A DNA stretch of 64,000 nt from Tridacna crocea (Eukaryota > Mollusca > Bivalvia > Cardiida > Cardiidae): NCBI GenBank assembly GCA_943736015.1, contig OX031064.1, positions 40,537,361-40,601,360 on the forward strand. The letters run 5' to 3'. How positions within the stretch are numbered: the first letter of the stretch is position 1; every line of letters starts with the position of its first letter. The notes below the pieces were generated by a model that saw only the letters and a program-made list of their open reading frames with translations, was not told the origin of the DNA and searched no databases. Both the position numbers and the translations under genes were made by a program. This document shows, in pieces, positions 3,441-63,428 of the stretch.

Positions 3441-4683
3441 AAGCAGGTCGAAGTATTGAATGCAGACAGTAATAACAGCGAATCACCCCTGACAGATCAA
3501 TAGCATTGTTGGAGTTTTGAAAACCTTACAGATACATTGCATAGTTGCAGTAAAATACCGCCAGCAGTAACTTCGAGGGACCCTTTGCAGTGGCACGGTA
3601 CAGCTGGAGTATTGAGAGATCCCTTGCAGTGGCATGGTACAGCTAGAGTATTGAATGCCATCATCAATTACTTAGAGAGATCCCTTGCATTGGCACGGTA
3701 CAGCTACAGTATTGAATGCCGTCATCAATTACTTAGAGAGATCCCTTGCAGTGGAACGGTACAGCTAGAGTATTGAATCCAGTCATCAATTACTTAGAGA
3801 GATCCCTTGCAGTGGCACGGTACAGCTGGAGTATCGAATGCCGTCATCAATTACACAGAGGGGCCCCTTGCAGTGGCACGGTACAGCTAAAGTATTTAAT
3901 GCCATCATCAATTACTTAGAGAGATCCCTTGCAGTGGCACGGTACAGCTAGAGTATTGAATCGAGTCATCAATTACTTAGAGAGATCCCTTGCAGTGGCA
4001 CGGTACAGCTGTAGTATCGTATGCCGTCATCATTTACACAGAGGGACCCCTTGCAGTGGCACGGTACAGCTAGAGTATTGAATGCCGTCATCAATTACTT
4101 AGAGAGATCCCTTGCAGTGGCACGGTACAGCTAGAGTATTAAATGCCGTCACCAATTACTCAGAGGGATCCCTTGCAGTGGCACGGTACAGCTAGAGTAT
4201 TAAATGCCGTCACCAATTACTCAGAGGGACCCCTTGCAGTGGCACGGTACAGCTGGAGTATCGAATGCCGTCATCAATTACTTAGAGAGATCCCTTGCAG
4301 TTGCACGGTACAGCTGGAGTATAGAATGAGGTCACCAATTACTCATACGGATCCCTTGCAGTGGCACGGTACAGCTGGAGTATTGAATTCCGTCATACAT
4401 TACTCTAAGGGACCCTTTGCAGTGGCACGGTACAGCTGGAGTATCGAATTCCGTCACCAATTACTCATACGGATCCTTTGCAGTGGCACGGTACAGCTGG
4501 AGTATCGAATGCCGTCATCAATTACTTAGAGAGATCCCTTGCAGTGGCACGGTACAGCTGGAGTATCGAATGCCGTCACCAATTACTTAGAGGGATCCCT
4601 TGCAGTGGCACGGTACAGCTAGAGTATCGAATGCCGTCATCAATTACTTAGAGAGATCCCTTGCAGTGGCATGGTACAGCTAG
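3441..4683. repeat. 61-bp satellite array, left part
   Basis: About 18-19 tandem copies of a 61-bp unit containing CCCTTGCAGTGGCACGGTAC, then GTATTGAATGCCGTCATCAA. The first copies (about 3441-3570) are degenerate and the phase then becomes regular. Units differ by scattered substitutions, such as AGAGAGATCC and AGAGGGATCC variants. The array is split by a retroelement at 4684-5536 and resumes at 5537. The unit is not a multiple of 3, so the open frames across it are fortuitous. Confidence 0.9.
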
Positions 4684-4988
4684 TCTTACGAACGAAGTCC
4701 GTAACAAAGAAACAAATGAATAAATGCATGGCAGAAATAAGGGTCGGAGCGGGATTCGAACTCCGGAACTCCCGGATACAAGACCAATACCCTAACCACT
4801 GAGCCAAAGAGATATCTCCCTGACGCAGTAGCCAGGTATTGTATTTAAATCGGGAGTATGCCATGCAGGAAGGAGTGGTCTCCCATAACACACCCCCTCT
4901 TAAAGTCATCATTTATTGATGACTCAAAGCCTTATTAGGCAGGAAGTCCGATTTTGGACAACAAATGGGATTAATGGCTCAATGGCCA

Positions 4989-5006
4989 ATCCCGGACGAG
5001 CCCCCA
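4989..5006 (-). other. Primer-binding site, tRNA-Pro type
   Basis: On the - strand this reads TGGGGGCTCGTCCGGGAT, directly after the LTR. From memory it is identical to the tRNA-Pro primer site of murine gammaretroviruses. It recurs at 5312-5329 and 11364-11381. This is the main evidence that the repeats are LTRs rather than SINEs. Confidence 0.9.
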
Positions 5007-5074
5007 TCTTACGAACGAAGTCCGTAACAAAGAAACAAATGAATAAATGCATGGCAGAAATAAGGGTCGGAGAG

Positions 5075-5129
5075 GGATTCGAACTCCGGAACTCCCGGAT
5101 ACAAGACCAATACCCTAACCACTGAGCCA
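5075..5129 (-). promoter_or_regulatory. tRNA-like A box and B box inside the TRIM LTR
   Basis: On the - strand the LTR contains TGGCTCAGTGGT (5118-5129), matching the A-box consensus TRGCNNAGYNGG at 11 of 12 positions, and GAGTTCGAATCC (5075-5086), a near-perfect B box. The spacing is as in a tRNA gene. The equivalents in the other LTRs are A 4795-4806 with B 4752-4763, and A 5441-5452 with B 5398-5409. The acceptor stem does not fold, so this is a promoter-like relic, not a tRNA gene. Pol III use is inferred. Confidence 0.75.
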
Positions 5130-5213
5130 AAGAGATATCTCCCTGACGCAGTAGCCAGGTATTGTATTTAAATCGGGAGTATGCCATGCAGGAAGGAGTG
5201 GTCTCCCATAACA

Positions 5214-5224
5214 CACCCCCTCTT
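5214..5224 (-). other. Polypurine tract
   Basis: On the - strand reads AAGAGGGGGTG, immediately upstream of the LTR start TGTTATGGG. The same tract lies at 4891-4901 and 11266-11276. It is the expected plus-strand priming site of an LTR retroelement. Confidence 0.8.
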
Positions 5225-5536
5225 AAAGTCATCATTTATTGATGACTCAAAGCCTTATTAGGCAGGAAGTCCGATTTTGGACAACAAATGGGATTAATGG
5301 CTCAATGGCCAATCCCGGACGAGCCCCCATCTTACGAACGAAGTCCGTAACAAAGAAACAAATGAATAAATGCATGGCAGAAATAAGGGTCGGAGAGGGA
5401 TTCGAACTCCGGAACTCCCGGATACAAGACCAATACCCTAACCACTGAGCCAAAGAGATATCTCCCTGACGCAGTAGCCAGGTATTGTATTTAAATCGGG
5501 AGTATGCCATGCAGGAAGGAGTGGTCTCCCATAACA

Positions 5537-5870
5537 CTAGAGTATTGAATGCCGTCATCAATTACTTAGAGAGATCCCTTGCAGTGGCACGTTACAGCTA
5601 GAGTATCGAATGCCGTCATCATTTACTTAGAGAGATCCCTTGCAGTGGCATGGTACAGCTAGAGTATCGAATGCCGTCATCAATTACTTAGAGGGATCCC
5701 TTGCAGTGGCACGGTACAGCTAGAGTATTGAATGCTGTCATCAATTACTTAGAGGGATCCCTTGCAGTTAAATGGCATAGATTAGTTGGAGTATTGAATG
5801 CCGTCAGCCGTAATACCCAGGAACCACTTAAAGATGCATGGCGCAGGTAGGGTATTGAATGCGATCAGCA
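5537..5870. repeat. 61-bp satellite array, right part
   Basis: About four regular units, then one or two degenerate ones ending near GTATTGAATGCGATCAGC. It continues the phase of the left part, so the array was continuous before the TRIM inserted. Confidence 0.85.
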
Positions 5871-5924
5871 AATTCAGACGTTCCATTTTTTTTTTAAAGA
5901 ATTTCAGCCAAATCCAATTAACTT

Positions 5925-5996
5925 CGGTTTACTTAAAAAAACCTCGTAACTACAGCTTGTTTCAAGCTGTAGTTACGAGGTTTTTGAAGTAAACCG
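5925..5996. repeat. 72-bp near-perfect palindrome
   Basis: CGGTTTACTT...ACCTCGTAACTACAGCTTG is mirrored by CAAGCTGTAGTTACGAGGT...AAGTAAACCG, with only a few unpaired bases at the centre. No other copy is in the window. It may be a tiny MITE. Confidence 0.8.
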
Positions 5997-6233
5997 ACGT
6001 TTGTATTATCTAATATTACTTTCAATTACTTAATTTATTAGGCATCGTTTTCTGTAACTCAAGAAGATATGGAAGGTCAGAAGGTAACTCGGGGAAAAAG
6101 TGTAACAGATAGCCCCAGTCTCCCTGAAAGTGTCAACATTATCCTATACCTTCATTGGGTATGGATCTACCCTCTTCATGTGTCTACAAGCAACATATAG
6201 ATCGCAAAAGATATAAGTAAGATATCATTTTCT

Positions 6234-11059: not shown

Positions 11060-11587
11060 TCTTACGAACGAAGTCCGTAACAAAGAAACAAATGAATAAA
11101 TGCATGGCAGAAATAAGGATCGGAGCGGGATTCGAACTCCGAACTCCCGGACGCAAAGCCAATACCCTAACCACTGAGCCAAAGAGATATCTCCCTGACG
11201 CAGTAGCCAGGTATTGTATTTAAATCGGGAGTATGCCATGCAGGAAGGAATGGTCTCTCGTAACACACCCCCTCTTAAAGTCATCATTTATTGATGACTC
11301 AAAGCCTTATTAGGCAGGAAGTCCGATTTTGGACAACAAATGGGATTAATGGCTCAATGGCCAATCCCGGACGAGCCCCCATCTTACGAACGAAGTCCGT
11401 AACAAAGAAACAAATGAATAAATGCATGGCAGAAATAAGGATCGGAGCGGGATTCGAACTCCGAACTCCCGGACGCAAAGCCAATACCCTAACCACTGAG
11501 CCAAAGAGATATCTCCCTGACGCAGTAGCCAGGTATTGTATTTAAATCGGGAGTATGCCATGCAGGAAGGAATGGTCTCTCGTAACA
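11060..11587 (-). mobile_element. TRIM retrotransposon, complete (LTR-int-LTR)
   Basis: Two 206-bp LTRs (11060-11265, 11382-11587) flank a 116-bp internal segment (11266-11381) with the tRNA-Pro primer site at 11364-11381 and the purine tract at 11266-11276. The two LTRs look identical by eye, which suggests recent insertion or gene conversion. LTR A boxes are at 11170-11181 and 11492-11503, B boxes at 11128-11139 and 11450-11461. No matching target duplication is visible (left CCTTG, right AAATC), so ectopic recombination between copies is possible. Confidence 0.9.
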
Positions 11588-22737: not shown

Positions 22738-23106
22738 TTAAAGGTGGGTATTTAGATTTTTCACATCACACCAAATTAGAAAATATATACATATCACCGA
22801 AATTTATACGAAAAAAAAAACACACACAAATCATCAATAATTAAGAATCATAAAATCACAAAAGAGAATTGGATGGTATTCCCCTAAAAGGCTACCTAGC
22901 ATCTTAAGCTATTCTTAGATTTCGCGCCAAAAAAAAGTATGTGGGAATGTTAGGTGACTGCCACGAGACGAATGACGCTTAAATTCCATAAGATAACAAA
23001 CATGTAATGATTTACCAGCCGATATAGCTCAGTAGGTAGAGCGTGCGACTCGTGAACACAATGTTTCGGGTTCGAATGCCCGGCTGGCCAACTAAAAGTT
23101 CTGATA

Positions 23107-23137
<31 letters not shown>

Positions 23138-23583
23138 GGTGTGACGGTGCTATACGCCGAGCACGTTAAAGAACCAGGCGAAGCTCTCAGTAGTTTCGAC
23201 CTGTATCCTTGCCCTATCCCCCGTAACAACTTACCGTCTTCTGGGGGTGTCGCTCAGATGGGCAACCGGTAGCGACGATAGACAAACGGAAATAACCAAC
23301 CAACATGTAATTATTTTCCATAATGTCTTCTTCAGACGCTATGTTTGAAGCTTCGTCCGTGTATTTCCAGAATGTAGATGAGTGAGTTGCTCACTATAAA
23401 AATAGACCGTGTTTCCGGTCGGTGTCGACCTGGTTGTAGTAAATCTCTAATTTCTCTTGTTGTCGGGATGGTTTTCGGCTACTGTGTTCTATCAATGAAA
23501 ATTGTAAGGCTTTGGGAGTATAAGGATGATTTTTTTGTATATTTGAAAAAAATTCGTCCCAAAATCTGAAGAGCCACCTTTAA
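22738..23583. mobile_element. Family F element interrupted by a SINE
   Basis: Starts TTAAAGGTGGGTATTTAG and ends GAGCCACCTTTAA, so the short TIR is AAAGGTGG/CCACCTTT with TTAA at both edges. Without the SINE (23015-23302) and its duplicated target it is about 540 bp. Two more copies are at 36431-36954 and, inverted, 47934-48478. TTAA targets and purine-rich termini recall Kolobok-type elements, but no transposase is present. Confidence 0.8.
23015..23302 (+). mobile_element. tRNA-derived SINE with Meta-like central domain
   Basis: The head is a tRNA-like sequence: A-box region TAGCTCAGTAGG and B box GGGTTCGAATGCC. The body, CTTTCGGATGAGAC through CCGAGGTCCGGTGTG and GCACGTTAAAGAACC, matches my memory of the Meta-domain shared by animal MetaSINEs, including bivalve families. 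The tail ends ACCAACCA. It is flanked by a ~15-bp target duplication, ACATGTAATGATTTA (23000-23014) and ACATGTAATTATTTT (23303-23317). The F copies without the SINE have this sequence only once. Confidence 0.85.
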
Positions 23584-30932: not shown

Positions 30933-31139
30933 TGTTACGGGAGACCACTCCTTCCTGCATGGCATTCTCCCGATTTAAATACAATACCTGGTTACTGTGT
31001 CAGGGAGATATCTCTTTGGCTCAGTGGTTAGGGTATTGGTCTTGTGTCCGGGAGTTCCGGGGTTCGAATCCCGCTCGGACCCTTATTTCTGCCATGCATT
31101 TATTCCTTTGTTTCTTTGTTACGGACTTCGTTCGTAAGA
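30933..31139 (+). mobile_element. TRIM solo LTR
   Basis: A single 207-bp LTR of the TRIM family in + orientation, TGTTACGGGAGACC...TTCGTAAGA, with no internal segment. It is flanked by ATAG on both sides (30929-30932, 31140-31143), a 4-bp target duplication, so it arose by LTR-LTR recombination after insertion. A box TGGCTCAGTGGT at 31017-31028. The B box GGTTCGAATCC at 31061-31071 is a full consensus match, better than in the other copies. Confidence 0.9.
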
Positions 31140-48956: not shown

Positions 48957-49175
48957 TTAAAAATTTATCACACAGTACGTACTTTTCACTGAACAAGAGA
49001 AAGAATACTTGAAAACATTGTGGGAAAAGGAGAAAATGCTGGTAACCGGCATTTTCTCCTTTTCCCACAATGTTTTCTACCTATCAAAGACGACTTCCAA
49101 AACATTTAATGTAGTAGCTACATTATGCTTTGTATTTGGATATGTCTAGCATTTTGTCCCTTGATGAAGGGTTAC
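48957..49175. mobile_element. Family A MITE abutting the WAP exon's splice site
   Basis: TTAAAAATTTATCACACAGT to CATTTTGTCCCTTGATGAAGGGTTAC, with a near-perfect hairpin at 49014-49077. The right end lies 12 bp upstream of the acceptor AG (49187-49188), so the branch point and most of the pyrimidine-rich tract must lie in MITE sequence. Confidence 0.8.
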
Positions 49176-49188
49176 ATATATGTTACAG

Positions 49189-49332
49189 GAAATACCGCCC
49201 CACAAGGGAGATGTCCAAGGGCAGATATCAGTTTTCCTTGCGGGGATCACTGTAGAACCGACTCAGATTGCTCGAATAACAGAAAGTGTTGTGATCATGG
49301 GTGTGGTCGATCCTGCAGGACCACAGTGACAG
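49189..49332 (+). CDS. Cysteine-rich secreted protein, exon 2 (WAP domain)
   Basis: 144-bp symmetric phase 1-1 exon between acceptor TGTTACAG|GA and donor GACAG|GTAGGC. It encodes one complete four-disulfide-core (WAP) domain. The eight cysteines run GRC, FPC, then DHC-x5-C-x5-CC-x3-C-x3-C, the canonical spacing. WAP domains are often serine-protease inhibitors or antimicrobial, and occur in molluscan shell proteins such as lustrin and perlwapin. Because the exon is symmetric, skipping it would keep the frame. Confidence 0.8.
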
Positions 49333-49829
49333 GTAGGCATGTGTTGTTGTGGTGGGGGTGTTAGACTGGGAAAACTAGTCTTTTACCAAGACGACCATTT
49401 GAAAGCACATTTCAGTATGTAAAATCGTATATTTGTCGACGTCCAAGTGTTCACTGCTTCTTCCGAAAGTATAAATTAATGTTCATATAATATATTTAAC
49501 CGAATCTTATTTGACTTGAAATGATGTTTTAAATGAGCTCTGGTCATATTTCAATTGTAGCCTTAGACTTCGTGACTAATCAAAAGTTTTTCTCGTTAGT
49601 CTACCTTTTAAAGTAGGCTTTTAAATGGAAGATAAAAAAAAATAAACAGAAGTTACCTGCTATACGCATATCGAAACATGTAAAAGGACTGATTTTGATG
49701 AATGTTTTCTTCTTTCAACAACTGAATTAGAATTATCCCCGCAATTAAACTATGGACCCACTTATCGACCTTGCTGGTTGGTTTGGCTGCAGCACGGTCA
49801 TGCGTCTTTCTGTTCGTCCATGTATAATA
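49333..49829. other. Intron 2, left unique part
   Basis: No repeat family or extra exon recognised. Confidence 0.4.
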
Positions 49830-50272
49830 ATATACTAATCAAAATTTTCGAGGGATCACCATATTAGATTAACCATTGAGCTTGCTGTGGCATCATGTAT
49901 GGTTTTACAATGCGTTTCATTGCCACACCAATTGATAAAATCATCAGTGGAAATGGATCTTTAACCCTTTACCATAGGAAGCCGACTGTTAAAGACACTG
50001 AGAAAGAAGCCTTTGGAAAAAATGTCGGAAAAAGGAGAAAATACTGAATACCAGCATTTTCTCCTTTTCCAAAGATATTTTCTACCCTTTGACTGACAGT
50101 TTATTGTACTTTGCTTTTGGGGTTCAGTCAGCGAATGTTTTCAACTTGGAAAAATCTAATTTTATTGCGTGGTAAAATGTTTCTGCAAAACTGCAGTAAC
50201 ATATACGTATATACTCATACTGAAAAATGTAAGTGATCCCTATCAAAGTGCGAGAAGTATATATATAGTAAC
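49830..50272. repeat. Dispersed repeat J, copy 2, carrying family A
   Basis: Aligns with 18590-19035 on both sides of the MITE at 49961-50182: TTTTCGAGGGATCACCATAT, ATCATGTATGGTTTTACAAT, GTAAGTGATCCCTATCAAAG. The LTR retrotransposon starts exactly at its right end. Confidence 0.65.
49961..50182. mobile_element. Family A MITE inside repeat J
   Basis: TTAACCCTTTACCATAGGAA to GCGTGGTAAAATGTTTC. Hairpin diverged. Same position within J as at 18730-18954. Confidence 0.7.
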
Positions 50273-50805
50273 TGTTACGAGCCACCAGTAACAAGAAAGA
50301 AAACCAGCAACAAGCCTTTAACAGTTAACAATATTTATTAATGAACAAAGACAAAAAGGTACAATAGGAGTTAAGTTTGAATGAAATTTTGTCAATTCTA
50401 ATCTTAGAATGTTGAAATAAAAGAAGTCCCTCAAAATTAAGGATAATGTTTAGACTACAAAAGAATGAAATTTCTGGTTCCTAAAACCTATATTAACAAT
50501 AGTGTCAAAGTAGATATGAGCAACCTTCAACAAAAAAAGTTATTCCAACTTACAGATGTATATCCCAGGTTAAACCCAACACTTTTCACTAATTCTGTAT
50601 CTTCCATGCCACAAATCTAACTTCAAAATCCAAAATCATGAAGTAAGTTACTCAGGACTATTTATATCAAATTGGAAAATTTTAAATCTAGAAAGATGAC
50701 ATCATTGATTAGTAAACAGCCTGATTCTAAAAATAACCACAGTTGAAAAACGTGGTTCTAGAATATTCTGAAAACAGGTCACTGTATATTCTATCTACAT
50801 AACTG
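50273..50805 (-). repeat. 3' LTR of the Ty3-type element
   Basis: 533 bp, LTR termini TG...CA decayed at one end. On the - strand it has TATA-like GATATAAATAG (around 50660-50670) and AATAAA (around 50333-50339). It is longer than its partner because the other LTR has lost a ~35-bp segment. Confidence 0.8.
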
Positions 50806-50820
50806 TTCCCCTCCTAAAGG
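50806..50820 (-). other. Polypurine tract
   Basis: On the - strand reads CCTTTAGGAGGGGAA directly before the 3' LTR. Confidence 0.7.
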
Positions 50821-50949
50821 AAAAGAAACTTTCTTTTGTTTGAAGATAGAAAATATCATTACAAATAAAATGTACGTGGACATACATTATACATATAGAC
50901 AAATATTAGCTATTTACAAATTCTAGACATTTAGCATCAGGGATACAAT

Positions 50950-51300
50950 TATCCCTACCTTTTGTGTGTCTGATACCCATGTTTTATTCTTGTAAAAACA
51001 GACTCCTCCGGAGTAAACGTTGATTCATGTTTTTCATTTCATGGATAAAACTTAGAGGATTATGATCACTTTATAAGATGATGGGTGCAAGAGAAGACGA
51101 CAAAATGCTGAAGAGCAAGAATAAGAGATAAACACACTTTTTCTATTGTTGAGTAGTTTTTCTGATGTTTGTTAAACTTTTTTAGAAATATAACTAACTA
51201 GATGATCTGCACCATTGTAATCTTCTTGAAGTAAAACATGTCCTGCACCCATATCACTAGCATCTACTTCAGCTTAAATTCCTTTCCAAAATTAGGTGCA
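50950..51300 (-). pseudogene. RNase H domain remnant
   Basis: The - strand translation gives EVDASDMGAGHVLLQ, the first RNase H aspartate motif, then KKFNKHQKNYSTIEK and, after a frameshift, SDHNPLSF and NQRLLRRS, the usual end of Ty3-type RNase H. Stops interrupt it. It joins the RT domain without a gap. Confidence 0.75.
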
Positions 51301-51398
51301 AAAAGAACTTTAATTTTTTAGTATGGTTTTTACTTTATCGAAAGCTTCTTGACAATCATCATTCCATATGATTTTTTTGTGTTTGATGAGAAGACTTG

Positions 51399-52175
51399 TC
51401 AGTGGCTCAGCAATGACAAAAAATTACCACAGAATTTCCTGTAGTAACCAGCCTTACCAAGAAATCTCATAAGTTGTATTTTGCATGTAGGTACATGAAA
51501 ATCAGAAATAGCTTTTGCATTAGCTTCTATAGGTTTTACATGTCCTTGTCCAACATCATGACCCAAAAATATTAAACTAGCATGACAAAATTCACTTTTA
51601 ACAAGATTAATTATTAATTTGGCTTTACTCAGTCTGTCAAAAATTCTCTGATCGATAGTCTTTAGATGGTGGTTCCGATCATCGCTGTAAATGATGACAT
51701 CATAAATGTAGGCCCTACAGCCGTCCAATCCAGATATTATCATGTTGATAACACGTTGAAATGTAACTGGCGAGTTTTTCATCCCAAAAGGGACAACATT
51801 GCACTGACAAAGTCCATCAGGAGTTACAAATACAGAGATTTTTTTAGTTCTTTCAGAGAGTGAAATTCGCCAAAATTTTTAGAAGATCAAATTTGGTAAC
51901 ATATTTAGCATGACTAAATATTGTCAATGCAGTCATCTACTCTTGGCACTGGAAAAGAATCAGTCTTGGTCACAGTATTAACTTTTCTATACAGTCAGTG
52001 AACATAATGAAAAGTTCTGGCTTTGGTACAAGAATATAGAGAGGACTCCATTTACTTTGACTAGTTTCAATGAAGTCATTCTCCAATGGATACCGGATTT
52101 CCTCTCTAAGATGCTCCAATTTCTTGGAATTCGATATGGATGTTGTTTCACTGATTTTGAATTTTCATCTTCCAC
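51399..52175 (-). pseudogene. Reverse transcriptase remnant
   Basis: The N-terminal part (51987-52175) has HPYRIP, typical of Ty3-type RT. The later part (51399-51782) has the palm motif and then FLGKAGYYRKFC. The catalytic Y-x-D-D position reads YIYD (51699-51710), so the first aspartate is replaced by tyrosine and the domain is dead even apart from stops between the two parts. Confidence 0.8.
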
Positions 52176-52660
52176 ATCATGGTATATTGTATCTGTGCAT
52201 GTTGTAATATCAGCTTAGAAACAGGTGCTCATATTCAGAAATTAACTTTTTCAATGTATCTTCGCTATTATTGTCTAAATGTGAAAGTTTTTTATCTACA
52301 TGTAAATTTGATAATATTTCAAAATTCTGAAGTTCTGAACCAACAGGGTTAGACTTATCAAAGTTCATGTCTTCACACGATTTATGTCTTCAGGGTTAAT
52401 GTGATTTAGATTTTGAGGGACAGAGGAAACTACATTTATTGGTGAAATATAAATCTCTATCAACATATTCTTTTAACATATAAATATGACATAATTGCTT
52501 TTGTTTTCGCCTGTCAGAATTGTTATCAATATTTTAAGCCACTGACCTTTCTTCTCTACAGAATAAAAACCAAAACATCGAGTTTTCTCTAAATTTGATT
52601 TCGCTTCCTCACAAGCTTTAAATAATCTGTTTCTAAAGTCAGATACATACTGAGGTAAAT
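52176..52660 (-). other. Decayed pol sequence between integrase and RT
   Basis: Expected linker between the integrase C-terminus and RT. Frames are broken and no motif is clear. Confidence 0.4.
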
Positions 52661-53482
52661 TTACAAAGAGTCTACTTGTGAAAGAAATGTTTCTTGTAAA
52701 AGTTTTAAAGGTCCGTGAACTGTGTAACCAAAAACAAGATCAAAAGGACTAAATCCAAGAGATTCCTGTGCAGACTCCCTTACTGCAAAGAGTAAAAGAT
52801 ATATACCTTCATCCCAATCCTTTTGTGGGTCAAAGCAATATGACCTTATCATATTTTTTAAGGTCTGGTGTAATTTTTAAAGGACACATTGGCTTTCAGG
52901 ATGATATGCAGATGACGTATATTGTTTAATTTCCATCTCGTGCATTACTTGTTGAAAAATGCCAGTCATAAAATTTGGCCCTTGATCAGATTGTACAGAT
53001 TAAGGAAGTCTTACAAAAGTAAAAAATTTCACTACAGCTTTGACAATTGTTTTTGATTTCATATTTCTTAAAGATATTGCTTCAGGAAAACGGATGGAAG
53101 CACACACAATTGTCAGAAGGTACTCATTGCCAGCCTTAGTTTTTGGCAAAGGACCTACACAATCAGTTATAATCCTGCTAAAAGGTTAATCAAATGCAGG
53201 GATAAGCTGAAGTTTAGCCGTAGGTGTGACCTTACTGGGTTTGCCTACCATTTGACAAGTATGATATGACCTACAATAATGTGATACATCTGCTTTTAGG
53301 CCAGGCCAATAAAAATGGATAAGAATTTTGTGATAGGTAATATCGATACCTAAATGACCTGACATAGGTGTTTCATGAGCAAAGTTAAATATTTCTGATC
53401 TATAAGATTTAGGTATGACAGCTTGATGATTGACAGCCCACTCATCATCAACAGAAACTTCAGGAGGGCGCCACTTTCTCAT
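52661..53482 (-). pseudogene. Integrase remnant (HHCC + DDE core)
   Basis: 53186-53482 holds the zinc-binding domain (H-x3-7-H then C-x2-C: FAHETPMSGHLG ... YCRSYHTCQ). The core follows with TDCVGP (first Asp), SDQGPNF (second Asp) and HPESQ (Glu), then ESLGFSPFDLVFG, a typical Ty3 integrase motif. At least three stops break it. It lies upstream of RT in transcription order. Confidence 0.85.
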
Positions 53483-53496
53483 TAATATTCCATCTT

Positions 53497-53844
53497 TTAT
53501 ATAAAAACAGGCTCCTGTGAAAGATCAGTTTCACTGACAGCATTTGAAAGTGTTATTTCTGCATCATTGTGCTGGTCTTCACTTTGTTTTGACCTTGATC
53601 TTGCATCATGGCCTTCTTTAACTAAAGGGGAAGATGTATTATCAAATTCTGATGAATTATGTTTAGAATTCATCTGACTTTCAGACAGGTTTTGTGAAAT
53701 AGACCTCTTAATTTCAGTTTTAAATAAATGATCCAACAAGGAATCAGATAAGTTAATATCAGACTGATTTTCAGTCAAAATGACTTTCTTTGCCATAGCT
53801 CTGGTAACTGCACATGAAGATAAAGGTCGGGAATTGTTCCTCAA
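53497..53844 (-). pseudogene. Spacer region between protease and integrase
   Basis: Open for 115 codons on the - strand and Ser/Asp/Glu rich. It starts near SSCAVTRAMAKK, resembling the linker ahead of integrase in metazoan Ty3-type polyproteins. No catalytic motif. Confidence 0.5.
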
Positions 53845-54029
53845 TCGGATTGGGTGATTGATCCATGCAAGGTGCGTCAGTTACAAGAGGATTAACAATT
53901 ACCTTATCACCGGCTAAATCATTGCCTAATAACAGATGAACACCTTTAAGAGGTAAATCTTTTCGAATAACCACAGTCACTGGACCATGATTTAAGGCTG
54001 AAGACAAATAAATGTTATGAAGCGGAACA

Positions 54030-54239
54030 TTAACAAATCCACAGTCTACTTCCTGAATAAGGACACTTGAAGAAGAAGAAGAATTTAGAAGAAGTTTTCT
54101 CAGAAAAAGGCAGGACATCCGCTGAAATAAGAGATTGAGAAGTTCCAGTATCACGTAAAACTTTAATTGGGGTAGACTGGGCAAAATCACTTTTTAGTGA
54201 TACAGAACTATCTGATAAGAATGGTTCATAAATCTCCAT
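54030..54239 (-). pseudogene. Aspartic protease remnant
   Basis: VLRDTGTSQSLIS (around 54125-54160) is the retropepsin active-site motif D-T-G-x-S. The downstream part continues in a shifted frame (53771-54190). Confidence 0.7.
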
Positions 54240-54307
54240 AACAATATCCGTTTCAGGTACTTTGGCCTAGACAAAAGTTTGGTCTTTAAAACATGACAGG
54301 TGTAACG

Positions 54308-55654
54308 TTAGACTTCAATCAAGTAAAGCTTGTACGCATAAAATTTTCTTGTTTTTTCCCATTTTCTTTTTACACCAGGACATTCAGAAATAGTATAACC
54401 TGATTCTTTGCAATGATTACAAGTGGGTCGAGAGAAGGGGTTTTGTTTTTCCTGTTTTCTTTTTAAAACAGAACATTTAGAAATGATATGACCCGATTGT
54501 TTGCAATAATTACAAGTAGGTCGAGAAAAAAGATTTTGACCTTTAGATTCATAAGTAGACTTGGATTTGGGACTATTCCGGTTGGAATTGATTGTCATAA
54601 AATTGATTAGAATTTGGCTTAGAACCAGTAGATGCATAAAAAGGTTTTCGAGGGTTTCATTTATTCAAGAAAGATACCTCCTACGTCAGTGCAAAGTTGT
54701 CTGCTAAGCAATCAGCTTTTTCTAAAGTTTCAACTTCGTTCTCGTCTAAGAATTTTTTGCATAGAAAGCAATGCACCTTTTACATTCTTCAACTAATAAA
54801 AGTTGTCTAAGTTCTCCATGATCTGAACCTATTTTCTTTGAATGGCACCACCTATCAAATAATTGTTCTTTAGCTCTGGCAATTCAACATGGGGTTGATT
54901 ATTTTCTTTCCTGCAATTTCTAATTTTTTGTCTATACGCTTCAGGTACCAATTCATTAGCCCTTAGAATCATTTCCTTAACATTATCATAATTATAGAGC
55001 TATTCATTACTTAGTTGCTAAAAGATATCACGAGTCTTTCCAGTTACAACACTTTGCAATAGTAAGGTCAAGTGTTCTTTTGCTCATTTCAAATTTTCAG
55101 CAAATCTTTCAAAATGTGAAAAGCATTTATTAACCTCTTTTTCTTGAAATGGCGGAACAAGCCTGGGGTGTTTTAGTATGTCAAAGTCATTAACCACATG
55201 CAAAGATGTTTTTTCTTTATTTTTCATTTCTAATTATTTTATTCTGATCTGAAATTGCCTATCATTTTCTCGTTCTTCAGCACGCATTTTAATTCTTTTT
55301 CTGTTATTCTTTCTTCTCGTTCTAATTCTTTTTCTTTCATTCTTTCTTCTTGCTCTAATTGTAATTTTATCTCCTGCAATCTCTTTTCTTTTTCTATCTG
55401 TAACTTTAATTTGTCTGTCTCAGTATATAGATTTTAATGTCTGTCTGAGACACAAGAATAAGATCAGACGAGTCAAGTATTTCTACCTCAAATAAAAACT
55501 GAACAATAGAATTTTTAATTTCATGCTTTAACATAATACCTTCAATGGCAGTCAATTTTTAATGAGAAGCAAGATCTAACAAATAAGACTTTTTTGCCAA
55601 ATTTAACAACTCCTGTGACTGCTCAGCAATACATATTTCAAGATCAGAAGACAT
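54308..55654 (-). pseudogene. Gag remnant with two zinc knuckles
   Basis: A plausible gag ATG is at 55654 on the - strand (MSSDLEICIAEQSQELL), with a stop about 30 codons later. A Glu/Lys/Arg-rich coiled-coil-like segment follows (about 55250-55440). Near the C-terminus are two CCHC knuckles (about 54400-54535): the first is intact (C-x2-C-x4-H-x4-C), the second has Tyr for His. Confidence 0.7.
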
Positions 55655-55781
55655 GATTGCTTTTTGCTCGTTCAATAAAATGAAAAACAAACTGTATTTT
55701 TTATTATTATTTTCTATCTAATAACCTTTAATACTATCACAAGTTCAACTTCAAAGTATATCAGAATTGACTAAATGATCA

Positions 55782-55799
55782 GTCTCGGACTAGCCTCCA
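55782..55799 (-). other. Candidate primer-binding site
   Basis: On the - strand TGGAGGCTAGTCCGAGAC, five bases after the 5' LTR. It begins with the TGG complementary to tRNA CCA. I cannot name the tRNA. Confidence 0.5.
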
Positions 55800-55804
55800 A
55801 TTTC

Positions 55805-56305
55805 TGTTACGAGCCAAGCGTAACAAGAAAGAAAACCAGCAACGAGCCTTTAACAATTAACAATATTTATTAATGAACAAAGACAAAAGAGTACAATAGG
55901 AGTAAGTTGGGATGAAATTTTGTCAATTCTAATCTTAGAATGTTGAAATAAAAGAAGTCCATCAAAAATAAGGACCTGAATTAACAATAGTTTCAACTTG
56001 CTAGTATATATGAGCAACCTGTATAAAAAAAACAAAATTATTTTAACTTACAGATGTATATCCCAGTTAAACCCAACACTTTTCACAAATTCTGTATCCT
56101 GCAAGCCACAAGTCTTACTTCAAAATCACCAAGTAAGTCACTCTTTTTTAAATCAGATTGGAAAATTCTAGATCTAGAAAGATGACATAAGATTAGTAAA
56201 CAACCTGATTCTAAAAATAACCTCAATTGAAAAAACAATACATGTTCTTCATCGTTCTAGAATATTCCGAAAACAGGTCACTCTACATCCTGTCTACATA
56301 AAACA
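55805..56305 (-). repeat. 5' LTR of the Ty3-type element
   Basis: 501 bp, TGTTACGAGCC...CATAAAACA on the + strand. Differs from the 3' LTR by many substitutions and a deletion, so the insertion is old. Confidence 0.8.
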
Positions 56306-59039: not shown

Positions 59040-59268
59040 TTAACCCATTACCACACAATCCCTACTTTTGACGCCGCTGAAAAAGAAGCCTTCAGAAAAC
59101 ATTGTAGGAAAAGGAGAAAATGCTGGTAACCAGCATTTTCTCCTTTTCCCACTATGTTTTCTACCCTTCACAAAACGAATTTCAAATTTTCAGTCACTTT
59201 TATTTTGTCATCTGCAAATGCTTTCTATTTGGACAAGCCTAAAATATTGTCGTTTGGTAATGAGTTAA
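59040..59268. mobile_element. Family A MITE, full length, in intron 3
   Basis: TTAACCCATTACCACACAAT to GTTTGGTAATGAGTTAA with a near-perfect hairpin. Opposite orientation to 2869-3103 and very similar. Confidence 0.85.
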
Positions 59269-61487: not shown

Positions 61488-62874
61488 GACCGACTCTTAA
61501 TCAAAGTAAAACAAGTTCATCTTAGAGTGAAAACGTGGATGCAGATTATATTCCATTGAATAACTTACTTTGTACAGAATGACGTCACTGTACATAGAAT
61601 AACGTAGATTTTATCACGCTTTCGTTGCACTAAAATTATGTATTTTTAGTAGACTATTTTTTCATGTATAAACATGCAAGAAAAGAAAAAACTGGGCGAA
61701 AACTCCTATTTCTTAAGTACTCCTTTCTAAAGAACTCGGCCATATATTTAAACACAAACATTTTCTTTTTTTTTTGCTTAAGAAAATAAGAAATCAAGTT
61801 TTATAAGTGTTAGTTTATTCATTTATGGGATTTTTTTATTTATAATTTTTGTTATATTACTGTTTCATCTCTTGTGCATGTGTATACAAAATCTTTTAGA
61901 AATTTTACTGAAAAAAATGAAAATAATACTAAGGTAGCCGCCCAATATCTTCGTGCTTGCAAAGAAATATCAGCCACGCTCTGTAAACGGGGGGTTTGAT
62001 GTATCTGTGTTCCACGATTGAATTCTTGATTATTCTACTTATTTTATAGATTTATATTGCTGCATGAATATACCACTTTGCATCTGCATGAATCCTAATT
62101 TAGTGATAGATTTAGTTATGATTACTCACTTACCTCAAGGAAATGACTAGTTTGCATCTTCCAGCACTTGAAGAAAATTTGTGACAAAAAAATAAATATT
62201 ACCAGTTACATGCAATTTCTCCTTTTGCTACAATGTTTAGTTTTCTTAATCACGTGTTTTTTTTCTATGTTGATTGTCTATAGACATCTTATAAGCCGTA
62301 TTAAAGTCAGCTGTCGCACATTATTTATACGAGGACTGGTGGCTTTTAGGATATTCGACACGTATGCGAGTTCTCGCATGAGATGTTTTTTTTTTTTCTA
62401 TAAAACTGACAAAATTACATTAGAGTATTTGTTTATGGAATAGAATACATGTACGAGTATTAGTTTCTGAAGATTGCAAAGTACAAGTTCATCTGCCTTT
62501 GACAAAAGCCAGATTACACAGACCAATCTTTCGGCCATAGCTATTACCCCCCTTCAGCAAAGTTAGTAAGTTAATCATACATAGATTAGTTCAACTGGTG
62601 ATATGTTTCTTTGCACTTACATTTACATGAAGATAATTTAAGCTGAAATTAAAGCCACATTATGGAATTGTTGGCACTGTTTTGCTAACGATGCACTTAA
62701 AAAGTTTTGATTGAATTCCCGAGACATGTATTTGACAGCCTTTGGTTGTTCTATCTCTGGTCTGATCTTGAATCGACTTTCTCTAAAGCCATACACTTGT
62801 GCTTTTACTCTTGTTTGGAAAATAGACAATTGACTCAGCAATTTATGATCCTGGTTGTTTTAAATTTCTTTCAG
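61488..62874. other. Intron 4 remainder
   Basis: A small family D end (CACGCTCTGTAAACGGGG, about 61976-62020) is the only repeat recognised. Confidence 0.35.
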
Positions 62875-63216
62875 TATACACTACTGTGCCTACTAGCGGG
62901 CCTTTTTATGCGCAGCAAAACCTACAACAGTCAAACTTTTACACCCAGCCAAATCAACAACAGTCAAATTTTTACCCGCAGCCAAATCAGCAACAGCCGA
63001 ATTTTTATTCACAGCCAAATCAACAGCAGCCAAATTTTTTACAACAGCCAAATCAACAGCTATTCAATCCTTACCAACAGCCAAATCAACTGACAAATTC
63101 TTACCACCAGCCAAATCAACTGTCTAATAACTATTGTGCACAAGTAAATTGTCCTCCTGCTAACTGTTATAACCCAGTTGTTCCACAGGGTGCATGCTGT
63201 CCAACATGTGTAAATG
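62875..63216 (+). CDS. Cysteine-rich secreted protein, exon 5 (Gln/Asn-rich repeat + half-VWC module 3)
   Basis: 342-bp symmetric phase 1-1 exon, acceptor TTTCTTTCAG|TA, donor AAATG|GTATGG. After VYTTVPTSGPFYAQQN it has about six imperfect 10-11-residue repeats of the form NFYxQPNQQQP, rich in Gln, Asn, Tyr and Pro. The third C-x4-C-x4-C-x9-CC-x2-C module follows and ends at the donor, so the protein continues past this exon and probably past the window. The repeat looks like an extensible or aggregation-prone linker, as in secreted structural proteins; that is inference. Confidence 0.75.
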
Positions 63217-63428
63217 GTATGGTTCGTGTGCGTGTGTTAGTTTCTAACTCTACTTAATCAAATTAAATGTGTTTGCAGTCAACACATAAAAATGTGGCTC
63301 AAAAATTGGATGTGTGGCAAGAACAGTTTGTGGGTAAAGAAGAAAGTACAGATTCGTCTTTCCCCATGATCTTTTTAAAAGCTCTTAGAGTACGCAGAAT
63401 AGACAACATGATCAGAATATATAATCTC
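63217..63428. other. Start of intron 5
   Basis: No further exon recognised before the window's end. Confidence 0.35.

What the first reader, a model, noticed from the sequence alone, without database searches (positions are those of the whole stretch)
4684..5536. Miniature LTR retrotransposon with a tRNA-like Pol III promoter inside its LTR
Seen: ~207-bp direct repeats, an 18-nt tRNA-Pro-type primer site directly after each LTR, a purine tract directly before the next, and inside every LTR an A box (11/12 consensus) and a near-perfect B box about 44 bp apart. Known: plant Cassandra TRIMs carry 5S rRNA in their LTRs. Inference: this is an animal analogue in which a tRNA promoter drives an LTR element. 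I do not recall a described molluscan case but cannot exclude one.
Basis: partly seen in the sequence, partly recalled or inferred. Interest (0 to 1): 0.92.

Follow-up and report, generated by a model that had tools for sequence, protein, structure and literature searches.

The report
Tiny retrotransposon with built-in tRNA promoter
A very small, non-coding jumping element carries a tRNA-type promoter in each of its repeated ends; this kind was described in 2024, but some of its genomic copies are mirror-image DNA pieces that may show where its RNA begins and that two of its RNAs can be copied together.

Summary
On the minus strand, 4684-5536 is LTR-internal-LTR-internal-LTR (207/116 bp) inside a 61-bp satellite, with a 4-bp duplication (CTAG), a tRNA-Pro primer site, a purine tract and A/B boxes. 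The window holds two further insertions. The host genome holds 1,870 exact LTR-PBS junctions; 56 of 62 sampled full elements have duplications of at least 4 bp, so it is an LTR element, not a SINE or satellite. This kind is known: it meets the Helenus features I could test (Kojima 2024: 51 bivalve families, some with tRNA-Pro primers). A Gypsy family sharing its primer site is the likely helper. New as far as my searches show: (1) the LTR looks like an old decayed palindrome, and its RNA folds far better in sense than antisense; (2) 37 loci carry an exact palindrome centred just before the A box. Six of 13 read lie between exact 4-bp duplications, and some have arms from two subfamilies. My reading: strong-stop cDNAs of two co-packaged RNAs primed on each other, which places the RNA 5' end beside the A box. 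Pol III use fits but is unproven.

The parts
5330..5536 (-). LTR 1 (5' LTR in the element's sense), 207 bp, TGTTATGG...CGTAAGA
5214..5329 (-). internal region 1, 116 bp, non-coding; PBS at 5312-5329, purine tract AAGAGGGGGTG at 5214-5224
5007..5213 (-). LTR 2 (middle), identical to LTR 1
4891..5006 (-). internal region 2, identical to internal 1; PBS at 4989-5006, purine tract at 4891-4901
4684..4890 (-). LTR 3 (3' LTR), one base different from LTR 1
5312..5329 (-). primer binding site, 18 of 18 complementary to the 3' end of tRNA-Pro (tRNA recalled)
4795..4806 (-). A box TGGCTCAGTGGT in LTR 3 (also 5118-5129 and 5441-5452)
4752..4762 (-). B box AGTTCGAATCC in LTR 3 (also 5075-5085 and 5398-5408)
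4809..4818 (-). 10-nt palindrome GAGATATCTC (LTR positions 73-82), apex of the predicted LTR hairpin, centre of the genomic palindromes and inferred place of the RNA 5' end
   Evidence: RNA start is inference
4680..4683 (.). target site duplication CTAG, right side in sense
5537..5540 (.). target site duplication CTAG, left side in sense
11060..11587 (-). second insertion, canonical LTR-internal-LTR; 206-bp LTRs identical to each other, internal identical to the first insertion; no target duplication
30933..31139 (+). third insertion, solo LTR, target duplication ATAG
50272..56301 (-). decayed Ty3/Gypsy element (approximate limits) that resembles the candidate helper: LTR end CTCGTAACAG, PBS-like TGGAGGCTAGTCCGAGAC (14 of 18 by eye), zinc-knuckle-like stretch 54308-54664, reverse transcriptase 51399-51878, integrase zinc-binding 53186-53524
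   Evidence: relation by motif comparison only

Best explanation
It is a Helenus-type TRIM: a non-coding LTR retrotransposon whose LTR carries the A and B boxes of a degenerate tRNA (closest to tRNA-Thr(TGT) among four recalled tRNAs tried). Inferred cycle: an RNA starts in the GAGATATCTC palindrome, 8-12 nt upstream of the A box, probably made by Pol III, and runs through the internal region into the 3' LTR. tRNA-Pro primes minus-strand DNA at the PBS. Proteins of a Ty3/Gypsy family with the same primer site copy the RNA and insert it with a 4-bp duplication. Because the RNA begins in a palindrome, the minus-strong-stop cDNA has a self-complementary 3' end, so two such cDNAs from co-packaged RNAs can prime on each other. 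The product is a linear palindrome with a U5 end at each side, and some of these integrate. The present LTR looks like an old decayed palindrome of this sort. Shown: anatomy, duplications, copy number, palindromes and, in several, arms of two subfamilies. Inferred: RNA start, polymerase, helper, priming route, origin of the LTR.
For: Anatomy and duplications: (56 of 62 full elements with duplications of at least 4 bp). Copy number: (1,870 junctions, reversed control 0). Helper: 766 PBS sites preceded by C, G or T; of the 100 listed, 96 have T; 6 read: all have the same or nearly the same LTR end and 21 of 21 bases from the PBS on identical to Helenus; only L106 was read further and has an open 723-aa frame with zinc-knuckle and protease motifs. 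tRNA-Thr likeness: (48, 34 and 43 for the three insertions; best of 300 shuffles 24, 25 and 22). Palindromes: 37 loci, reversed control 0; 13 read; 6 with exact 4-bp duplications TTTT, AGAC, TTGT, ATCG, TCAT, CCCA, the first and third judged by eye. Arms from two sources: (10 loci; 22 of 35 arm differences are between alleles shared in the family, which exist at 11 of 130 columns; L117 and L121 differ at all of 108, 109, 113, 123, 125 and 148). Palindromes at two other centres: TTCGAA 0, ATGCAT 0. LTR as decayed palindrome: (1, 0 and 2 of 2,000 shuffles reach the score). Sense fold.
Against: No expression data. A TATA-like box suits Pol II as well. Rfam's tRNA model does not hit the LTR. Among young copies the A box is not significantly more conserved than other stretches (29 of 197 windows as conserved or more), and the B box is not at all (118 of 197). 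Absence of TTTT is rare by composition (P about 0.006 for insertion a) but 23 of 138 overlapping GC-matched window segments also lack it, 62 of 66 sampled 5' LTRs lack it on the antisense strand too, and 5 of 66 3' LTRs have it in sense. Pol III would then stop only in flanking DNA, leaving the RNA 3' end unexplained. The palindrome search fixed the centre, and the two control centres are 6 nt long against 10 nt here, so the place of joining may partly reflect palindrome strength. 24 of 37 palindrome loci were not read. Seven of the 13 read do not show an exact duplication at both ends. Of the 10 loci compared, 4 (L112, L118, L120, L123) have no arm difference at shared alleles. The sampled copies share ancestry, so counts over them are not independent.
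Confidence: 0.7

Rival explanations
1. Helenus-type TRIM transcribed by Pol II from the TATA-like box TTTAAATA (LTR 42-49), with the A and B boxes only inherited from an old SINE or tRNA insertion.
For: TTTAAATA lies 31-35 bp before the inferred start (for its place); A and B boxes are not significantly more conserved than the rest of the LTR among young copies.
Against: In insertion (a) the LTR has no AATAAA or ATTAAA; the only one is in the internal region before the 3' LTR, where use would remove R. The A box is intact in 64 of 67 rows.
Confidence: 0.3
2. A tRNA-derived SINE, copied by a LINE, that happens to lie in tandem or in pairs.
For: Promoter half resembles tRNA-Thr.
Against: 4-bp duplications, PBS and purine tract directly at the LTR borders, LTR pairs identical in 19 of 61 elements with median divergence 0.96%; 77 of 100 listed LTR ends lie in LTR-internal-LTR elements.
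Confidence: 0.02
3. The palindromes come from intramolecular fold-back of one cDNA, or from quasipalindrome correction of the LTR at the DNA level, not from two cDNAs.
For: The normal LTR already has the 10-nt palindrome and decayed arms; arms of L118 and L123 are identical, and those of L112 and L120 differ only at private sites.
Against: Arms of L117, L119 and L121 carry different subfamily alleles including an indel; four palindrome-only insertions run from U5 end to U5 end between 4-bp duplications.
Confidence: 0.2

Closest known systems
Helenus (TRIMp3; Kojima 2024, PMC10886601; abstract, Methods, Results, Discussion and tables read)
   Same: TRIM with tRNA-derived sequence in the LTR, PBS and PPT, 4-bp duplications in animals, tRNA-Pro PBS in some bivalve families, Gypsy helper inferred from shared PBS; tandem arrays noted for LTR-11_DR
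   Different: The paper's main text has no occurrence of hairpin, palindrom, inverted, self-prim or strong-stop; identity with a catalogued family not testable here (supplement and Repbase not held)
biv-TRIM (Satovic 2019, PMC6934838; abstract, first part of Results and Discussion read)
   Same: Bivalve TRIM of similar LTR length (202-218 bp), tandem and solo forms
   Different: Internal 77-80 bp, PPT mostly GGGGAGA, no clear PBS, no tRNA promoter described in the parts read
Cassandra (plants; passages in PMC10853983 and PMC10886601)
   Same: Pol III-type small-RNA promoter inside the LTR of a TRIM
   Different: 5S rRNA rather than tRNA; plants
Self-priming of HIV-1 minus-strong-stop cDNA (passages of PMC4668388)
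   Same: Structured R end lets strong-stop cDNA prime aberrant DNA
   Different: There described as heterogeneous, abortive products (intramolecular by recall); here joined products are found integrated between target duplications

Membership tests
Helenus | tRNA-derived sequence with A and B boxes in the LTR | tested here: met
   (tRNAs recalled); but no hit to the Rfam tRNA model
Helenus | two LTRs with PBS and PPT, short, non-coding (311-1263 bp) | tested here: met
   canonical copy 528 bp at 11060-11587; open frames overlapping the three insertions no longer than 108 aa
Helenus | 4-bp target duplication (animals) | tested here: met
   two of three window insertions; 56 of 62 sampled full elements have at least 4 bp
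Helenus | PBS complementary to a tRNA 3' end | tested here: met
   18 of 18 to tRNA-Pro, tRNA sequence recalled
Helenus | Gypsy helper sharing the PBS | tested here: met
   same 21 bases in 6 of 6 loci read, gag-protease-like open frame in the one read further (L106); helper role itself not tested
Helenus | Pol III transcription | not testable with these tools
   no RNA data; the author too states that it needs experimental validation
Helenus | sequence match to a published Helenus consensus | not testable with these tools
   supplement and Repbase not held
biv-TRIM | 77-80 bp internal with PPT mostly GGGGAGA and no clear PBS | tested here: not met
   116 bp, PPT AAGAGGGGGTG, 18 of 18 PBS (family features)
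Cassandra / Ajax | 5S rRNA sequence in the LTR | tested here: not met
   no 5S family among Rfam matches with E up to 10
SINE | LINE-type insertion without LTRs, PBS or PPT | tested here: not met
Satellite DNA | repeat confined to tandem arrays | tested here: not met
   62 of 70 sampled rows are two-LTR elements with both ends, most with their own duplications

The most novel reading that the evidence does not exclude
LTRs of this family are born by cDNA dimerisation. Because the RNA starts inside a palindrome, strong-stop cDNAs of two co-packaged RNAs prime on each other and integrate as U5-R/R-U5 palindromes with normal duplications; the U3 of today's LTR is an ancient inverted R-U5 made this way, and selection has kept its pairing in the sense RNA, perhaps so that the 5' R and the 3' U3 of the genomic RNA can pair end to end. 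The palindromes are then a natural record of RNA 5' ends and of co-packaging.
Probability: 0.4. Interest if true: 0.68.

Novelty: new member of a known kind. Interest (0 to 1): 0.45.

Why it matters
As an element it adds a high-copy, recently active case to a class named in 2024 whose promoter function is untested. The integrated palindromes would matter more. If read correctly, they let one infer from genome sequence alone where a retrotransposon RNA begins and that two RNAs of different subfamilies were reverse transcribed in one particle, and they show integrase accepting two U5 ends. They also suggest a simple origin for an LTR's U3 region. All of this can be checked in other Helenus families.

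Tried and rejected
Rfam and ARAGORN for a tRNA in the LTR: none. One element pattern each in the viral and prokaryote collections: 0 matches. Conservation of A and B boxes as proof of selection: a first test used boxes placed one to two bases off; with correct places the A box ranks 29 of 197 and the B box 118 of 197, so this is not claimed. Covariation within the hairpin: of 8 stem pairs with a shared variant, three keep sense pairing in 65 to 67 of 67 rows, four lose it in 6 to 13 rows, and one (34/123) is mostly gapped. Not enough. Between the arms, G-U pairs number 6 against 1 A-C pair in sense, suggestive only. Other recalled tRNAs: tRNA-Pro and tRNA-Lys also exceed shuffles slightly in some insertions, tRNA-Val does not. 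Loci L101-L105 as helper elements: all are Helenus relatives, and window RT and integrase pieces find nothing in them. The antisense LTR half as a second tRNA: no (465 of 1,000 shuffles as good). Low-score Rfam microRNA hits on the LTR reflect the hairpin and sit far below gathering scores.

Rows dropped: L047, L058 and L059 (same arrays as L046 and L057) before counts; also L031 and L056. L045 and L058 were incomplete. L114, L115 and L116 (diverged, or unequal arms) were left out, which used 10 of 13 palindrome loci. Of the 100 junction places listed (1,870 in all), 70 of the first 74 were read, all on contig 1; two tandem pairs were skipped and the last 26 not read.

Papers: PMC10886601 (abstract, Methods, Results, Discussion, tables and legends read; passages of the rest); PMC6934838 (abstract, first part of Results, Discussion); PMC10853983, PMC12859917 and PMC4668388 (passages only); all others search listings only. 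The statement that integrated strong-stop palindromes were not found in print rests on the listings (10, 8 and 10 papers shown of 65, 34 and 251) and on the word searches; it is a weak negative.

Full report
What is there. On the minus strand, 4684-5536 reads LTR-internal-LTR-internal-LTR, 207 and 116 bp, period 323. Two LTRs are identical and the third differs at one base; the two internals are identical. The array sits in a 61-bp satellite and is bounded by CTAG on both sides; joining the flanks with one CTAG restores the satellite at 157 of 160 bases, whereas the eight other offsets tried give at most 100. Two further insertions lie in the window: a canonical LTR-internal-LTR at 11060-11587 with identical 206-bp LTRs but no duplication, and a solo LTR at 30933-31139 with ATAG duplicated.

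Signals. Each LTR that is followed by an internal region meets TGGGGGCTCGTCCGGGAT directly; three exact hits in the window, none in 100 shuffles. It complements 19 nt of a recalled human tRNA-Pro(AGG) with CCA. AAGAGGGGGTG precedes the next LTR. A box 11/12 and B box 10/11 (11/11 in the solo LTR) start 44 bp apart. The A-to-B stretch aligns to a recalled tRNA-Thr(TGT) at score 48 against a best of 24 in 300 shuffles for insertion (a), 34 against 25 for (b) and 43 against 22 for (c). ARAGORN and the Rfam tRNA model find no tRNA. So the LTR keeps the promoter half of a tRNA, not a tRNA.

The family in the host genome (1.05 Gb, unnamed). The exact LTR-end plus PBS junction occurs 1,870 times, reversed control 0; the last 25 bases of the LTR occur 2,563 times, control 0. 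Of 70 junction loci read on contig 1, 64 rows have both LTR ends, 4 are truncated and 2 incomplete; after removing repeated arrays 62 full elements remain, 56 with duplications of at least 4 bp. LTR pairs differ by a median of 0.96% and 19 of 61 pairs are identical, so the family moved recently. Of the first 100 LTR ends listed, 77 lie in LTR-internal-LTR elements, 5 of them judged by spacing alone, and 23 are solo or have a mutated partner.

Known kind. Kojima 2024 (PMC10886601) describes this architecture as Helenus, with 51 families in Pteriomorphia bivalves, 4-bp duplications in animals, bivalve primer sites that include tRNA-Pro, and Gypsy helpers inferred from shared primer sites. The window element meets the Helenus features I could test, with the reservation that the Rfam tRNA model does not hit it. 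biv-TRIM (PMC6934838) differs in internal length, purine tract and lack of a clear primer site.

Helper. The same primer site preceded by C, G or T occurs 766 times, control 0. Six were read; all have the LTR end CTCGTAACAG or a close variant, then AAAT, and share the first 21 internal bases with Helenus. The one read further, L106, has an open 723-aa frame with a zinc-knuckle-like stretch and DTGASQS, a protease-like motif (motif names recalled). A decayed element of similar make-up lies in the window at about 50.3-56.3 kb. That this family moves the element is inference.

The LTR as a decayed palindrome. The LTR RNA folds to about -80 kcal/mol, z -6.6; the three insertions give z -4.9 to -7.0 in sense and -2.1 to -3.0 in antisense, and the sense-minus-antisense difference exceeds all 200 shuffles in each. 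Sense folds better in 62 of 62 copies over 90% identical, which share ancestry. With LTR 72-81 left out, the first 71 bases align to the inverted rest of the LTR better than all but 1, 0 and 2 of 2,000 shuffles in the three insertions; controls run on insertion (a) (direct R-U5, internal in both directions) do not stand out. The A box lies in the hairpin's 3' arm; the apex GAGATATCTC is LTR 73-82.

Fresh palindromes. L031, one of 66 sampled rows, has its U3 replaced by an inverted R-U5. The exact 36-mer junction, searched with its centre fixed, occurs at 37 loci, reversed control 0. Thirteen were read. Six show exact 4-bp duplications: L031 TTTT, L112 AGAC, L113 TTGT, L119 ATCG, L120 TCAT, L121 CCCA; L112, L119, L120 and L121 are palindrome-only, running from U5 end to U5 end. 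L115 has GATT/AATT; L117, L118, L122 and L123 run into internal or PBS sequence on one side; L114 and L116 are diverged. In ten loci with usable arms, 22 of 35 arm differences are between alleles shared in the family, although only 11 of 130 columns carry such alleles; L117 and L121 differ at all six sites of one haplotype, L122 at four shared sites, L119 at three, L031 at two, L113 at one, and L112, L118, L120 and L123 at none. Palindromes centred on TTCGAA and ATGCAT in the same LTR gave 0, with the caveat that these centres are shorter.

Reading. Both ends of the palindrome-only loci are U5 ends next to 4-bp duplications, so they were integrated as linear DNA. Arms from two subfamilies mean two templates, at least in those loci. 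The simplest source is two minus-strong-stop cDNAs from co-packaged RNAs whose 3' ends, copied from RNA 5' ends inside GAGATATCTC, anneal and prime on each other. This puts the RNA start 8-12 nt before the A box, near where a tRNA-type Pol III promoter would start (spacing recalled), and also 31-35 bp after the first base of a TATA-like box, so it does not settle which polymerase. Strong-stop self-priming is known for HIV-1 (passages of PMC4668388); I saw no report of integrated products in the listings.

Limits. No RNA data, no host name, no Repbase. The helper, the polymerase and the priming route are inferred. Absence of TTTT on the sense strand of the window copies (P about 0.006 for insertion a by composition; but 23 of 138 overlapping GC-matched segments also lack it; sampled LTRs lack it in 65 of 66 5' LTRs and 61 of 66 3' LTRs in sense, and in 62 of 66 5' LTRs in antisense) fits Pol III read-through only weakly and leaves the RNA 3' end open.

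Noticed in passing
window 50272-56301 (-): Decayed Ty3/Gypsy element, LTR stretches up to 93-94% alike; its PBS-like site is 14 of 18 to the Helenus PBS by eye and preceded by the same AAAT spacer as the genome-wide helper candidate.
   Followed up: partly
window 23010-23300 (+): tRNA-type A and B boxes followed by CTTTCGGATGAGACAATAAACCGAGGTCC, which from memory resembles the conserved central domain of widespread animal SINEs; looks like an ordinary SINE.
   Followed up: no
window 5917-6004: Near-perfect long hairpin (23-bp perfect arms within about 40-bp arms) beside the satellite; perhaps a small palindromic transposon.
   Followed up: no
window 49011-49086, 50016-50091, 59095-59170 and others: Recurrent family of short palindromic repeats (GAAAACATTGTGGGAAAAGGAGAAAATG ... 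inverted).
   Followed up: no
window 3614-4683 and 5537-5768: 61-bp satellite array, 88 and 94% matches, that served as the target of the insertion.
   Followed up: partly
window 49110-49364 and 62826-63257: Coding pieces with a WAP domain (Pfam, E 3.4e-10) and a weak VWC match (below Pfam's cut-off) after Asn/Gln-rich repeats.
   Followed up: no
L118 1-88: Beside the palindrome the locus continues into PBS sequence joined to B-box-like sequence, suggesting a further template switch.
   Followed up: no
L074: Both LTRs are 218 bp; the 5' LTR has an extra 12 bp (GAGATATCTCTT) at the apex palindrome, so an altered apex was probably copied into both LTRs during replication.
   Followed up: no
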